In this document: positions 20,183-24,009 of the stretch, piece by piece | How the letters are laid out: each line of letters opens with the position of its first letter | How positions within the stretch are numbered: position 1 is the first letter of the stretch | Source of the DNA: a virus | Length of the DNA: 24,009 nt | Direction: 5' to 3' (one strand) | IMG/VR virus record: IMGVR_UViG_3300029259_000536 | Span: 1-24,009 of that record | Made by a program: the position numbers and the translations under genes | The notes under the pieces: generated by a model | What the model saw: the letters and a program-made list of their open reading frames with translations, nothing else | Told to the model about the DNA's origin: nothing | The model's database searches: none

Positions 20183-20683
20183 CTATTGTTTTTTTGCTGG
20201 TTTAACATTGATTCTATTATTTCTATTCCTTGGTACTACTCTCCTTGTAGGTGGGTTATTAGTTGGTCTTAACCTTGGGATTGGGTTTGTACGTGGAGGT
20301 GTTGTGTTTCTTCTTGTTTTAGGTCTTGTTCTCTGTTTAACTTTCGGTCTATTAGGCGTGCTATACACAGGAGGAGAAACATTATAATACCTATTCCCAT
20401 TTGTAAAACTGTTTGAGTAATATCTAGGGTAGTTATTAAAGTATCTAAACCTGTTATAAGAGTACTCCCAGCTGTTTCCGTATGGGTAATTGTATTGATA
20501 TCTTGTATTAAATCTATCATAATTATTATTTTGAAATTTATTTATGGGTACGGCTATGGTATCACCCTCAGCTGTAATCGTTAATACTTTAACTATGTTT
20601 ACTCGTGGGGTATTAGTATTGATTATTTCAAACGTCCCACATGATTGGAACACTACCATTATTAATAAAATAATTTTTTTCAT
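20183..20683 (-). CDS. Phage-encoded lipoprotein, Tyr/Asn then Pro/Arg-rich (166 aa)
   Basis: The N-terminus MKKIILLIMVVFQSCGTFE is a lipoprotein signal peptide with cleavage before Cys15 and the Ser-Cys-Gly pattern of Bacteroidota. After a short beta-like part (about 25-50) the chain is Tyr/Asn/Arg-rich (about 52-100) and then Pro/Arg/Thr-rich and very basic (about 105-166). No catalytic motif is visible. It could be an outer-membrane lipoprotein acting in lysis (o-spanin) or in superinfection exclusion; o-spanins are also Pro-rich lipoproteins but are much shorter. It heads the operon 20183-18771 behind the recurring promoter at 20777. A second frame inside it encodes a TM-containing ORF (20269-20520). 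Confidence 0.82.
   Translation of the reverse strand: MKKIILLIMVVFQSCGTFEIINTNTPRVNIVKVLTITAEGDTIAVPINKFQNNNYDRFNTRYQYNYPYGNSWEYSYNRFRYFNNYPRYYSNSFTNGNRYYNVSPPVYSTPNRPKVKQRTRPKTRRNTTPPRTNPIPRLRPTNNPPTRRVVPRNRNNRINVKPAKKQ
20269..20520 (-). CDS. Possible embedded TM ORF inside the lipoprotein gene (83 aa)
   Basis: A second minus-strand frame within the lipoprotein gene encodes 83 residues with a hydrophobic helix (MGIGIIMFLLLCIARLIDRK at about 41-60) followed by a charged tail (NREQDLKQEETQ). A start at Met41 would give a 43-residue TM protein. Nested spanin genes are known in phages, so it is worth noting. There is no ribosome-binding site and no other sign that it is expressed; chance is a serious alternative. 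Confidence 0.25.
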   Translation of the reverse strand: MIDLIQDINTITHTETAGSTLITGLDTLITTLDITQTVLQMGIGIIMFLLLCIARLIDRKLNREQDLKQEETQHLHVQTQSQG

Positions 20684-20813: not shown

Positions 20814-22649
20814 CTACACTTGTCCACCATCAATTACAGTCCATGGTGTATTAACAATAGATGTTCTAGCAGTTACAGATGAAATGGTGAAGGTTAAATC
20901 GTTAGTAAATCTTGCATTTACCAAACGTGCACTACCTACCCACCCTTGAAGTAAACTATTATAGTTAGTTGTTGTCATAGCAGTAGCGATAAACATATTA
21001 TTAGCTGTTATTAAACTTCCAACATCCCAATTTCCTATATCTTGACTAAAGGCTGTAGCTCCATTAAACATATTATCCATATTAGTTACATTACCTGTAT
21101 CCCAAATACTTAAATCTTGGTTAAATAACGTAGCATTTTGAAACATACTATCCATAATACCTACATTATCTACAGTCCAGTTGGTTAAAGGTAGATTAAA
21201 AGCAGATGCATCTTTAAACATATTACCCATAGTAGTAATATTTGAAGTATCCCAAGCCCCAATAGGTTGATTGAATGCTGATGCACCTTGAAACATATTA
21301 TCTACATCTAGAAGTGCTGTAGTAGGCCAAGTACTTATATTTTGATTAAATGATGTAGCAAACCTAAACATAGAATCCATTATAGTTACACTAATTACAT
21401 TCCAACTTGAAATATCTACATCAAAAGCTGCAGCTCGATCAAACATACCAAACATATCAGTAACTAAGCCAGTTTGCCAACTACTTATATTTCCATTAAA
21501 AGAATATGCTCCATTAAACATACTTTGCATATTAGTAACTTTACTAACATCCCAAGTATTTAAACTCTGGTTGAAATTCACCGCATCCCTAAACACTATA
21601 AACATGTTAATTACGTTACTTACATCCCAACCACTTAAGGGTTGATTAAAAGTAGTAGCATTATCAAACAATCCTGCTACATCAACTAAACTTGTAGTAA
21701 CCCAGGTGTTAATACTAGCGCTACCTCCATTATTAAATGCAAAGGCCTTTTGGAACATAAAAGCCATATTATTCACAGAAGAAACATTCCAACCTCCAAT
21801 ATTTTGGTTAAAAACACTACACGTATTAAACATGCCACTCATACGAATCACATTACCAACATTCCAATTAGATATATCCCCATTAAATGCACTATTTCCA
21901 AAAAACATACTACCCATGTTGGTTACATTAGATGTATCCCAACTATTTAGAGGTTGATTGAAAACCAAGTTAAAGAAGAACATCCCTTCCATATTAGTCA
22001 CATTAGAAACATCCCAATTATTTAGGGGTGAGTTAAACTTTGAGGCACCAGCAAACATAAAATACATTTCAGTAACTAAACTTAAATCAGGAGCCTCAGC
22101 ATCGGAAAATCCAGTTAAATTACTACACCCATTAAACATATTTTCCATACTAACCCATTGAGTAGTACCCCAATTTATCACCCGAGTAATAGTTTGGCTT
22201 TGAGCAGCAGTAACACCATTTACGCCTTGTTCTAACTTATCCCAATCACCAAAGATACTAATATCATAATCCCCAGCAGTAACATATGTGTGAGTGGGTA
22301 TACCTGTTCCACTTTCTATGGTAGTATCCCCCCAATTAATAGTAAAGGTTGCAGCAGCATCATTTTTAGTAATACCAACTTTCATTACAAAGTTATTAGT
22401 AGGTATAGTAACACGGATAGTAAAGTCATCAGTTACATCTCTCGCTTTAGAGGTTTTATCCCTATCACTACCACCTGCTGCTTTTTGAGCAATCATCATT
22501 TGATGTAGTTGGATATTACTTACATAGTTTTCAAATAGAAATTGTTCATCTCTAAATTTTTCCTTTAACTCTAATAAGGGTAGGTTTACGTTATCATTCC
22601 TTTTAATAAAGTGTAACCAGTTTCCTGGGTCAGTTGGTTCTATTAACAT
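20814..22649 (-). CDS. BspA/DUF285 repeat protein with PKD-like domain (611 aa), fibre or adhesin
   Basis: Layout: a 47-residue N-terminal module shared with the neighbouring 374-residue protein; a PKD-like domain at about 75-155 (TINWGDTT ... HTYVTAGDYDI); about 15 DUF285 repeats of 25 residues at about 168-545 (type MFxxAxxFNQxLxxWDVSNVTNM); and a C-terminal cap at about 555-611 (NYNSLLQGW ... NTPWTVIDGGQV). DUF285 repeats form BspA-type leucine-rich-like solenoids and occur in surface adhesins of Bacteroidota and Mycoplasma. There is no signal peptide, so in a phage it is more likely a virion fibre or spike than a secreted adhesin. Host recognition is inferred. It is the middle member of a tandem family. 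Confidence 0.85.
   Translation of the reverse strand: MLIEPTDPGNWLHFIKRNDNVNLPLLELKEKFRDEQFLFENYVSNIQLHQMMIAQKAAGGSDRDKTSKARDVTDDFTIRVTIPTNNFVMKVGITKNDAAATFTINWGDTTIESGTGIPTHTYVTAGDYDISIFGDWDKLEQGVNGVTAAQSQTITRVINWGTTQWVSMENMFNGCSNLTGFSDAEAPDLSLVTEMYFMFAGASKFNSPLNNWDVSNVTNMEGMFFFNLVFNQPLNSWDTSNVTNMGSMFFGNSAFNGDISNWNVGNVIRMSGMFNTCSVFNQNIGGWNVSSVNNMAFMFQKAFAFNNGGSASINTWVTTSLVDVAGLFDNATTFNQPLSGWDVSNVINMFIVFRDAVNFNQSLNTWDVSKVTNMQSMFNGAYSFNGNISSWQTGLVTDMFGMFDRAAAFDVDISSWNVISVTIMDSMFRFATSFNQNISTWPTTALLDVDNMFQGASAFNQPIGAWDTSNITTMGNMFKDASAFNLPLTNWTVDNVGIMDSMFQNATLFNQDLSIWDTGNVTNMDNMFNGATAFSQDIGNWDVGSLITANNMFIATAMTTTNYNSLLQGWVGSARLVNARFTNDLTFTISSVTARTSIVNTPWTVIDGGQV
21015..22148 (-). repeat. Tandem 75-bp DUF285 coding repeats (about 15 units)
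   Basis: This is the repeat region of the 611-residue gene. Each unit of about 25 codons keeps Met-x-x-Met-Phe, Phe-Asn and Trp-x-x-(Ser/Thr)-x-Val at fixed spacing; units differ at most other positions. The period is occasionally longer (a 29-residue unit with FAFNNGG). Such arrays can change length by recombination. Confidence 0.85.
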
Positions 22650-22669
22650 ATTATTTTTATTTTTTATTA

Positions 22670-23794
22670 TTATGGTGTGCAGTTAGTAAAATTTGGTTTG
22701 GGTAATACCCAAGAATCGGTTCCATCAAATACCTGCCCACATAGTGAAACACCACCTACACTCCAACTACTTAAATCTTGATTAAAATCACTGTTATTAA
22801 TAAACATCCCAAACATTTGGTTAACATTATTTACATCCCAACTACTAATATCTTGATTAAAATACACACCACCAAAAACAGCATTGTAACCAAACATAAA
22901 ATCCATATTAGTTACACTTGTTAATCTATTTGCCCAAGAAACAATAGAATTATTATTAAATGATGACATAAAAAACAACGATCTCATTGTAGTAACAGCA
23001 GAAACATCCCATCCCCCAATATCAGCGTTAAATACTTGTGCATTAGAAAACATACCATCCATATTAGTCACTAACGAAGTACTAGTTCCTGCTGACCATG
23101 AGAGAGGTAATTCACCATTGTTAAATGCAAATGCATTATTAAACATAGCTTGCATATTAGTCACAGAAGAAACATTCCAATCACCAATATTTTGATTAAA
23201 TACTAAAGCACCTTTAAACATAGCAACCATATTAGTCACAGAAGAAACATCCCAAGCGCTAATATCCTGATTAAATGCTCTTGCAAAATTAAACGTATTA
23301 TTCGTCAAAGTAACACTGCTAGTATCCCAATTCCCAATAGGTTGATTAAATGAATTTGCTCTAAAAAACATAAATGACATATCTGTTACGTTAGACATAT
23401 CCCACCTATTAATATTATCGTTAAATGTAGAAAGGCCACTAAATAGTCCCTGCATATCTGTAATAGCACTTACAATCCAATAATTTATTTCACCATATTG
23501 TGCTATAGCTGCAGCTCTATTAGTTACCCATAAAGCAATAGCAGCGTCTAATTGAGCCCTCGATATAAAAGTAAACACAACCCCCTCATAAACATAAGGT
23601 TTCTTTCTCTCTCCACCACCCCAATTATCAGAAACTATTAGTTTACTAAGTTGTTGGAAGTTAGTTATATAGTTTTCAAATAAGATTTGTTCGTCTCTAT
23701 ATTTTTCTTTTAACTCTAATATAGGTAAACCTTTATTATCCTCCCGTTCTATGAAGTGTAACCAGTTACCAGGATCTGTTTGTGATATTAACAT
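22670..23794 (-). CDS. BspA/DUF285 repeat protein (374 aa), fibre or adhesin
   Basis: The first 47 residues match the N-terminal module of the 611-residue protein at 35 of 47 positions ([25 protein letters not shown]). A linker with [20 protein letters not shown] (about 82-101) leads into about nine DUF285 repeats at about 112-350 (for example [20 protein letters not shown]). It lacks the PKD-like domain and the NTPWTVIDGGQV cap of its sister and ends with a different Cys-containing tail (CGQVFDG ... NFTNCTP). No signal peptide. It is probably the same kind of virion surface protein, with the shared N-terminus serving as attachment module and the repeats as the variable part. Confidence 0.85.
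22745..23461 (-). repeat. Tandem DUF285 coding repeats (about 9 units)
   Basis: Repeats of about 25-31 codons in the 374-residue gene, with Met-x-x-Met-Phe, Phe-Asn and Trp at fixed spacing. One unit (FAFNNG with a longer loop) corresponds to the elongated unit in the 611-residue gene, indicating common descent of the two arrays. Confidence 0.8.
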
Positions 23795-23811
23795 ATTACT
23801 TTATTCGTTTA

Positions 23812-23820
23812 TTATAAATA
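23812..23820 (-). promoter_or_regulatory. TATTTATAA motif upstream of the 374-aa fibre-like gene
   Basis: The minus strand reads TATTTATAA in the 48-bp gap between two DUF285 genes, 17 bases before the ATG. No well-spaced -35 is present. It is the same nonamer as at 9353 and 12674, which also precede virion genes. Confidence 0.4.
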
Positions 23821-23842
23821 TTAACCAATATTATTGTTTTTT

Positions 23843-24009
23843 TTATACTTGACCACCATCAGTTACAGTCCATGGTGTATTAACTATAATTGTTCTAGCA
23901 TTATCTGATGCTGCAGTGTATGTTAAATCGTTACTAAACGTTGCATTTACTTTACGTGGACTATTAACCCACCCTTGAAGTAAACTATTATAGTTAGTTG
24001 TTGTCATAC
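23843..24009 (-). CDS. Third BspA/DUF285 protein, C-terminal fragment only
   Basis: The minus-strand frame entering from the window edge encodes MTTTNYNSLLQGWV, then a NDLTYTAAS segment and the end NTPWTVTDGGQV before a TAA at 23843-23845. This is the same C-terminal cap as in the 611-residue protein (NYNSLLQGWV ... NTPWTVIDGGQV). The start and the repeats lie beyond the window. It shows that at least three paralogs stand in tandem. Confidence 0.85.
   Translation of the reverse strand, partial: MTTTNYNSLLQGWVNSPRKVNATFSNDLTYTAASDNARTIIVNTPWTVTDGGQV

What the first reader, a model, noticed from the sequence alone, without database searches (positions are those of the whole stretch)
20814..24009. 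Tandem array of three BspA/DUF285 repeat proteins with a shared N-terminal module in a T4-like phage
Two complete and one partial DUF285 genes stand head to tail. The whole ones share 35 of the first 47 residues but differ in the middle (PKD-like domain or not), in repeat number (about 15 and 9) and in the C-terminal end. The cap missing from the 374-residue protein is kept in the partial third copy. A conserved N-terminus with a variable repeat body, and no signal peptide, is the layout of exchangeable tail fibres. DUF285 solenoids are known from bacterial surface adhesins, so the phage seems to use an adhesin scaffold for host binding, perhaps captured from its host. Fibre function is inference.
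Basis: partly seen in the sequence, partly recalled or inferred. Interest (0 to 1): 0.72.

Follow-up and report, generated by a model that had tools for sequence, protein, structure and literature searches.

The report
Phage adhesin genes with leucine-rich-like repeats
A marine phage, probably of Flavobacterium-type bacteria, carries a row of at least three genes for coiled repeat proteins of a kind bacteria put on their surfaces, and comparison with other phages indicates that phages use this repeat body as the sticking end of their fibres, although for these particular genes that has not been shown.

Summary
The array is real: p611 (20814-22649, -), p374 (22670-23794, -) and the last 54 codons of a third gene cut by the contig edge. 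p611 and p374 share 35 of 47 N-terminal residues, and both are strong DUF285/PARCEL (TIGR02167) proteins. Two corrections: p374's cap is not missing but is a different type (..LPKPNF..), and the third copy's N-terminus is not in the window. The N-module occurs only in phage contigs of the window's own clade, at the same locus, with one copy each; it was not found in 84,980 bacterial and archaeal genomes or in cultured phages. In a wider survey, cellular DUF285 proteins start with signal-peptide-like sequences (66/77) and phage ones do not (4/64). Phage DUF285 bodies also sit on true fibre N-termini. Best case: contig G006, collinear with the window's phage (gp6-like protein 61% identical), encodes at the normal fibre locus a 1281-aa fibre (fibre N-terminus, collagen stalk, DUF285 tip 43% identical to p611). 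A virion-displayed adhesin is therefore the best reading. But the array lies away from the canonical fibre block, among secreted and lipoprotein genes, and virion attachment is not shown. DUF285 in phages is already annotated; its use as a fibre tip seems little described.

The parts
20814..22649 (-). p611: N-module + PKD-like domain + DUF285/PARCEL repeats + NYxxLLxGW..WTVIDGGQV cap
   Evidence: PF03382 3.9e-121, TIGR02167 164 bits, model mean pLDDT 75.6
22470..22649 (-). N-module of p611 (residues 1-60), proposed anchor; pLDDT low, one helix at 37-57
   Evidence: alignment A1, model
22170..22430 (-). PKD-like beta-sandwich of p611 (about residues 74-160)
   Evidence: model block pLDDT mostly 85-96; the same layout in L036 passes the PF00801 cut-off
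20955..22157 (-). repeat solenoid of p611, 25-residue period, 14 strict units plus degenerate edges
20817..20987 (-). C-terminal cap of p611 (about residues 555-611, low model confidence), also present in sister phages, other phages and cellular proteins
22670..23794 (-). p374: N-module + short N-cap + about 9 DUF285 units + LPKPNF-type C-cap
   Evidence: PF03382 2.9e-67
23651..23794 (-). N-module of p374 (residues 1-48)
   Evidence: 35 of 47 residues identical to p611
23477..23587 (-). alternative N-cap of p374 ([25 protein letters not shown]..), similar to the one before the DUF285 tip of the G006 fibre (LNTGISLWISDQASAITTYGQINTW)
   Evidence: alignment text
22673..22732 (-). alternative C-cap of p374 (..[13 protein letters not shown])
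23843..24009 (-). partial third copy: last 54 codons only, same cap as p611 (83.4% DNA identity), runs off the contig
20183..20683 (-). lipoprotein-like gene directly downstream (MKKIILLIMVVFQSCG..), conserved next to the DUF285 gene in all relatives that reach the locus

Best explanation
p611, p374 and the partial third copy are paralogous phage adhesins meant for display on the virion. The roughly 60-residue N-module would anchor each chain to the particle or to a fibre, followed by a PKD-like spacer (p611) or none (p374), a DUF285/PARCEL beta-solenoid that presents a variable surface to the host envelope, and a terminal cap. Shown: the domain layout, lack of signal peptide, restriction of the N-module to this phage clade, and use of a homologous DUF285 body as the tip of the collagen-type fibre in a collinear relative. 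Inferred: that the N-module binds the virion, that the solenoid binds a receptor, and that duplication plus repeat and cap exchange changes binding range.
For: Contig G006 is collinear with the window's phage from the phosphohydrolase through sigma-like, baseplate and downstream structural genes (gp6-like 61%, 221-aa gene 76% identical to G002). At the fibre slot it has a 1281-aa protein with a fibre N-terminus (E 1.5e-9 to the 1506-aa protein in the same slot of G002), a collagen stalk (PF01391 2e-83) and a DUF285 tip 43% identical to p611 over 319 columns, with the same cap. L194 fuses PF23140 (podophage GP4 fiber I, 9.8e-45) to DUF285 (7e-55). In the 462-kb phage LR756500 a PKD-DUF285 protein directly follows five genes, several with the same MPRIKNKQI-like start typical of fibres; in Synechococcus ACG-2014f the DUF285 gene follows tail-collar and baseplate genes. 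Neighbours of phage DUF285 genes match portal, terminase, tail-fibre and minor-tail families. Signal-like starts: 66/77 cellular, 4/64 viral, Fisher 2.7e-23. N-module conserved while bodies vary between 4 and 14 strict units.
Against: The array is separate from the canonical fibre block of relative G002. The 1506-aa G002 protein and its neighbours have no Pfam match, so that block is named fibre by its layout and by homology to the G006 fibre, not by family. The locus in relatives holds secreted or lipoprotein genes: a 195-aa Endonuclease_NS protein in L009, the lipoprotein, a type IX secretion tail in L073, a MAM protein in L066. The N-module matches no known anchor and is poorly modelled. 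No virion proteomics was found for this phage.
Confidence: 0.6

Rival explanations
1. Accessory proteins that stay in or on the infected cell (for example in a superinfection-exclusion, lysis or host-modification module) and are not part of the virion.
For: The conserved downstream neighbour is a lipoprotein-like gene; L009 has a nuclease of the Endonuclease_NS family with a signal-like start between the two; the wider clade carries secreted proteins, including a type IX secretion tail, at or near the locus.
Against: p611 and p374 have no signal peptide, unlike nearly all cellular DUF285 proteins; DUF285 sits on a true fibre in the same clade.
Confidence: 0.2
2. Capsid or neck decoration (Hoc-like) carrying adhesion domains, rather than a tail fibre.
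For: Two phage DUF285 N-termini match a Hoc-like head-decoration family (phrog_2973, 3e-14); several phage DUF285 genes lie next to portal or terminase genes; PKD and Ig-like domains are common in decoration proteins (general knowledge).
Against: The window's own N-module has no Hoc-like match; the closest functional analogue in the clade is a fibre.
Confidence: 0.15
3. Assembly artefact or decaying duplication: the array is an error of repeat assembly, or the extra copies are relics.
For: All relatives have one copy; the near-twin contig breaks exactly here; no second contig with p374.
Against: Both complete ORFs are intact with distinct caps and domains; p374's N-module is nearer to those of sister phages (82-85% DNA) than to p611 (80.6%), which argues for old, maintained paralogues.
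Confidence: 0.05

Closest known systems
DUF285 / TIGR02167 PARCEL repeat proteins (BspA-family surface proteins; PMC2996958)
   Same: 25-residue repeat, DUF285 and TIGR02167 scores far over the cut-offs, the same NYxxLLxGW / WTIxDGG cap as many cellular members
   Different: Cellular members surveyed here mostly have signal peptides; these have a phage-specific N-module instead and no signal peptide
DUF285 proteins of other phages (OBP_145, Aeromonas D3, Synechococcus ACG-2014f, Sphingomonas PAU gp103, Vibrio pir03)
   Same: Same repeat family, no signal peptide in most phage members surveyed, often near structural genes; the two cap types recur
   Different: Those shown have other N-termini; the window's N-module has no match among 50,697 phage records
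G006 collagen-type tail fibre with DUF285 tip (IMG/VR 3300017746_000099)
   Same: Same phage clade; DUF285 tip 43% identical to p611, same C-cap, N-cap of the p374 type
   Different: A single long fibre at the canonical fibre locus, with fibre N-terminus and collagen stalk; the window's proteins are short, stand-alone and at another locus
Immutovirus (Flavobacterium phage immuto)
   Same: Collinear baseplate and neighbouring genes, gp6-like 44.8% identical
   Different: Not among the DUF285 matches listed; its annotated fibres and spikes lie downstream of the baseplate genes

Membership tests
DUF285 (PF03382) / TIGR02167 PARCEL repeat family | Profile score over the curated cut-off | tested here: met
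   398 and 224 bits against 25; 164 and 65 bits against 30
DUF285 (PF03382) / TIGR02167 PARCEL repeat family | Tandem 25-residue repeats | tested here: met
   Spacing 25 in most units
DUF285 (PF03382) / TIGR02167 PARCEL repeat family | Palindromic DNA in the repeat-coding sequence | not tested
   Described in PMC2996958; no dyad-symmetry test was run
Bacterial BspA-type secreted surface adhesin | Signal peptide for export | tested here: not met
   No hydrophobic N-terminal stretch in p611, p374 or sister proteins
Phage tail fibre / receptor-binding protein | Conserved virion-type N-terminus with variable distal body | tested here: inconclusive
   N-module conserved and body variable, but the N-module is not shown to be a virion anchor
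Phage tail fibre / receptor-binding protein | Encoded in or beside the tail-fibre block | tested here: not met
   Fibre-type genes lie beyond the baseplate genes in G002 and G006; the array is on the other side
Phage tail fibre / receptor-binding protein | Homologous body used as tip of a true fibre in the same clade | tested here: met
   G006 1281-aa fibre
Phage tail fibre / receptor-binding protein | Presence in the virion; trimeric assembly; host binding | not testable with these tools
   No proteomics, complex prediction or binding assay available

The most novel reading that the evidence does not exclude
The DUF285 proteins are separately encoded, exchangeable tip adhesins: in the window's clade the long fibre has no DUF285 tip, and the stand-alone N-module proteins dock on the virion or fibre as interchangeable heads (comparable in role to separate tip adhesins such as T-even gp38), with the tandem array giving several specificities in one phage.
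Probability: 0.15. Interest if true: 0.7.

Novelty: new variant of a known kind. Interest (0 to 1): 0.5.

Why it matters
DUF285/PARCEL is a large protein family of unknown function, with no sequence relative in the PDB found from this alignment and no confident fold match, spread over bacteria, algae-infecting giant viruses and phages. The signal-peptide divide and the fibre fusions indicate that in phages it works as a fibre tip, so phage receptor assays could give this family a tested function. It also gives a candidate set of host-binding proteins for uncultured marine phages of Bacteroidota.

Tried and rejected
N-module search in genome contigs: 591 pattern matches, none a relative; the method needs exact short peptides, so distant forms could be missed. 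L017 hit of the N-module: hmmsearch E 0.016, an unrelated-looking phage, treated as chance. L073 269-aa protein in a similar slot has a vaguely similar N-terminus (hhalign P 4.7e-4, probability 32%, Neff near 1): suggestive only, and a search with it found just two contigs and no cultured phage. TATAAATA late-promoter scan: 9 found, 9.0 expected. Promoter and terminator scan near the shuffled background. Foldseek against the PDB: nothing at E below 0.001; against viral models: BspA-family proteins of phages and giant viruses. Literature: phage DUF285 appears as annotation (PMC7765460) and two DUF285 proteins are in the virion of a giant virus of algae (PMC7507832); no paper on DUF285 as a phage fibre tip was found in the held library.

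Full report
What is there. The window is the whole of a 24,009-base IMG/VR record. On the - strand it holds, in order of transcription, the last 54 codons of one DUF285 gene (23843-24009), p374 (22670-23794) and p611 (20814-22649), then a lipoprotein-like gene (20183-20683) and, further on, small genes and a T4-type baseplate cluster including gp25-like and gp6-like genes. PF03382 scores are 398 bits (p611) and 224 bits (p374) against a cut-off of 25; TIGR02167 (PARCEL repeat) is also well over its cut-off in both. The two complete proteins share 35 of 47 N-terminal residues.

Corrections to the observation. p374 does not lack a cap: it ends in ..[13 protein letters not shown], as phages OBP and Aeromonas D3 end in ..LPRPNFV and ..KPRPNFA, while p611, the partial copy, the sister phages and PAU gp103 use the NYxxLL..DGG cap. 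The third copy's N-terminus is outside the record. The array rests on one assembly: the near-identical contig L013 breaks 25 bp upstream of p611, and p374 was found in no other contig.

Which phage. The closest cultured relative by baseplate genes is Flavobacterium phage immuto (gp6-like 44.8% over 99%), with collinear neighbours. A Bacteroidota host is therefore likely but not shown.

The locus in relatives. Six IMG/VR contigs carry the N-module or the repeat body at the same place (L009, L010, L011, L012, L013, L035), one DUF285 gene each, followed by the lipoprotein-like gene (in L009 with one nuclease gene between), as the window's array also is. A seventh contig, L030, starts inside a preceding gene and still shows the lipoprotein gene. 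The N-module is 62-63% identical to p611's; body length varies from 4 to 14 strict units. In a more distant branch (L036, L038) the same neighbourhood has a PKD + DUF285 protein with a different N-terminus (MSTFNYSF..), a domain that in other contigs stands alone or carries another body. So N-terminus and body appear to be exchanged independently at this site.

The N-module. It has no match in 50,697 cultured phage records and none in genome contigs. In viral contigs it is confined to the window's clade. AlphaFold gives it low confidence, with one helix. It is proposed as a virion anchor only by its position and by analogy.

DUF285 in phages versus cells. With the C-terminal repeat-cap segment as query, 79 genome and 80 viral loci were collected. 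A simple hydrophobicity rule calls a signal-like start in 66 of 77 cellular and 4 of 64 viral complete ORFs after removal of duplicates (Fisher p = 2.7e-23). The rule is crude, samples are related, and both sets were chosen by similarity to this clade, so the p-value overstates the evidence, but the contrast is large and several cellular misses are late-start artefacts.

DUF285 as fibre tip. Contig G006 is collinear with the window from phosphohydrolase (52%) through sigma-like (66%), gp25-like (53%), gp6-like (61%) to structural genes that match G002 (221-aa gene 76%). In the slot where G002 has a 1506-aa protein, G006 encodes a 1281-aa protein: its first 45 residues match the G002 protein (E 1.5e-9), a long collagen stalk follows, and the last part aligns with p611 at 43% over 319 columns, including the cap. 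Its N-cap (LNTGISLWISDQASAITTYGQINTW) resembles that of p374. Independently, L194 joins the GP4 fiber I domain PF23140 to DUF285, and phage DUF285 genes often neighbour portal, terminase, fibre and minor-tail genes. This is the main evidence that the family serves phages as an adhesive tip.

Limits. In G002 the fibre-type genes lie on the far side of the baseplate cluster, away from the DUF285 gene. Nearby genes in relatives encode proteins with export signals: a nuclease of the Endonuclease_NS family in L009 and, in the wider clade, a type IX secretion tail and a MAM-domain protein. A non-virion role is thus still possible, and head decoration cannot be excluded.

Origin. Cellular proteins with the same cap are spread over many phyla, with many Flavobacteriia, at 33-44% identity over the full query and up to 59% over 54 residues; sister phages reach 55-60%. 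This fits old exchange between phages and cells rather than recent capture.

Verdict. A real, multi-copy DUF285 array with a clade-specific N-module; most likely virion-displayed adhesins (0.6). New variant of a known kind; interest 0.5.

Noticed in passing
L009:3074-3658: A 195-aa protein with a signal-like start and an Endonuclease_NS domain (PF01223, 2.5e-25) lies between the DUF285 gene and the lipoprotein gene of a sister phage.
   Followed up: partly
L073:3-410 and L066:4420-7224: Phage contigs of the wider clade encode a protein with a type IX secretion sorting domain (PF18962, 6.6e-10) and a 935-aa protein with a signal-like start and a MAM domain, upstream of the baseplate cluster.
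   Followed up: partly
window:18771-19694 (-): A 307-aa protein (MKIGCWHQGIVGKGVQTDEK..) without any Pfam, NCBIfam or PHROG match, found among the loci held only in the window and its near-twin L013; it sits in the same stretch as the DUF285 array.
   Followed up: partly
L025:5228-7833: Two genes in the fibre block of G002 (401 and 311 aa) share an N-terminus (MGNFSTYFPIPSSGGGGG / MSNFSTYFPIPSSGGGGG), a second candidate anchor sequence.
   Followed up: no
L221, L220, L222, L223 (993-aa ORF): DUF285 protein with a hydrophobic glycine-rich start; part of its N-terminal region matches a 762-aa ORF of L253 (E 7e-13) that resembles a tail-tip protein, perhaps a DUF285 insertion in a tail-tip protein.
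   Followed up: no
p611 model m51025ebc8846: DUF285 has no PDB sequence match from this alignment and no confident fold match, so the solenoid appears to be structurally unsolved.
   Followed up: partly
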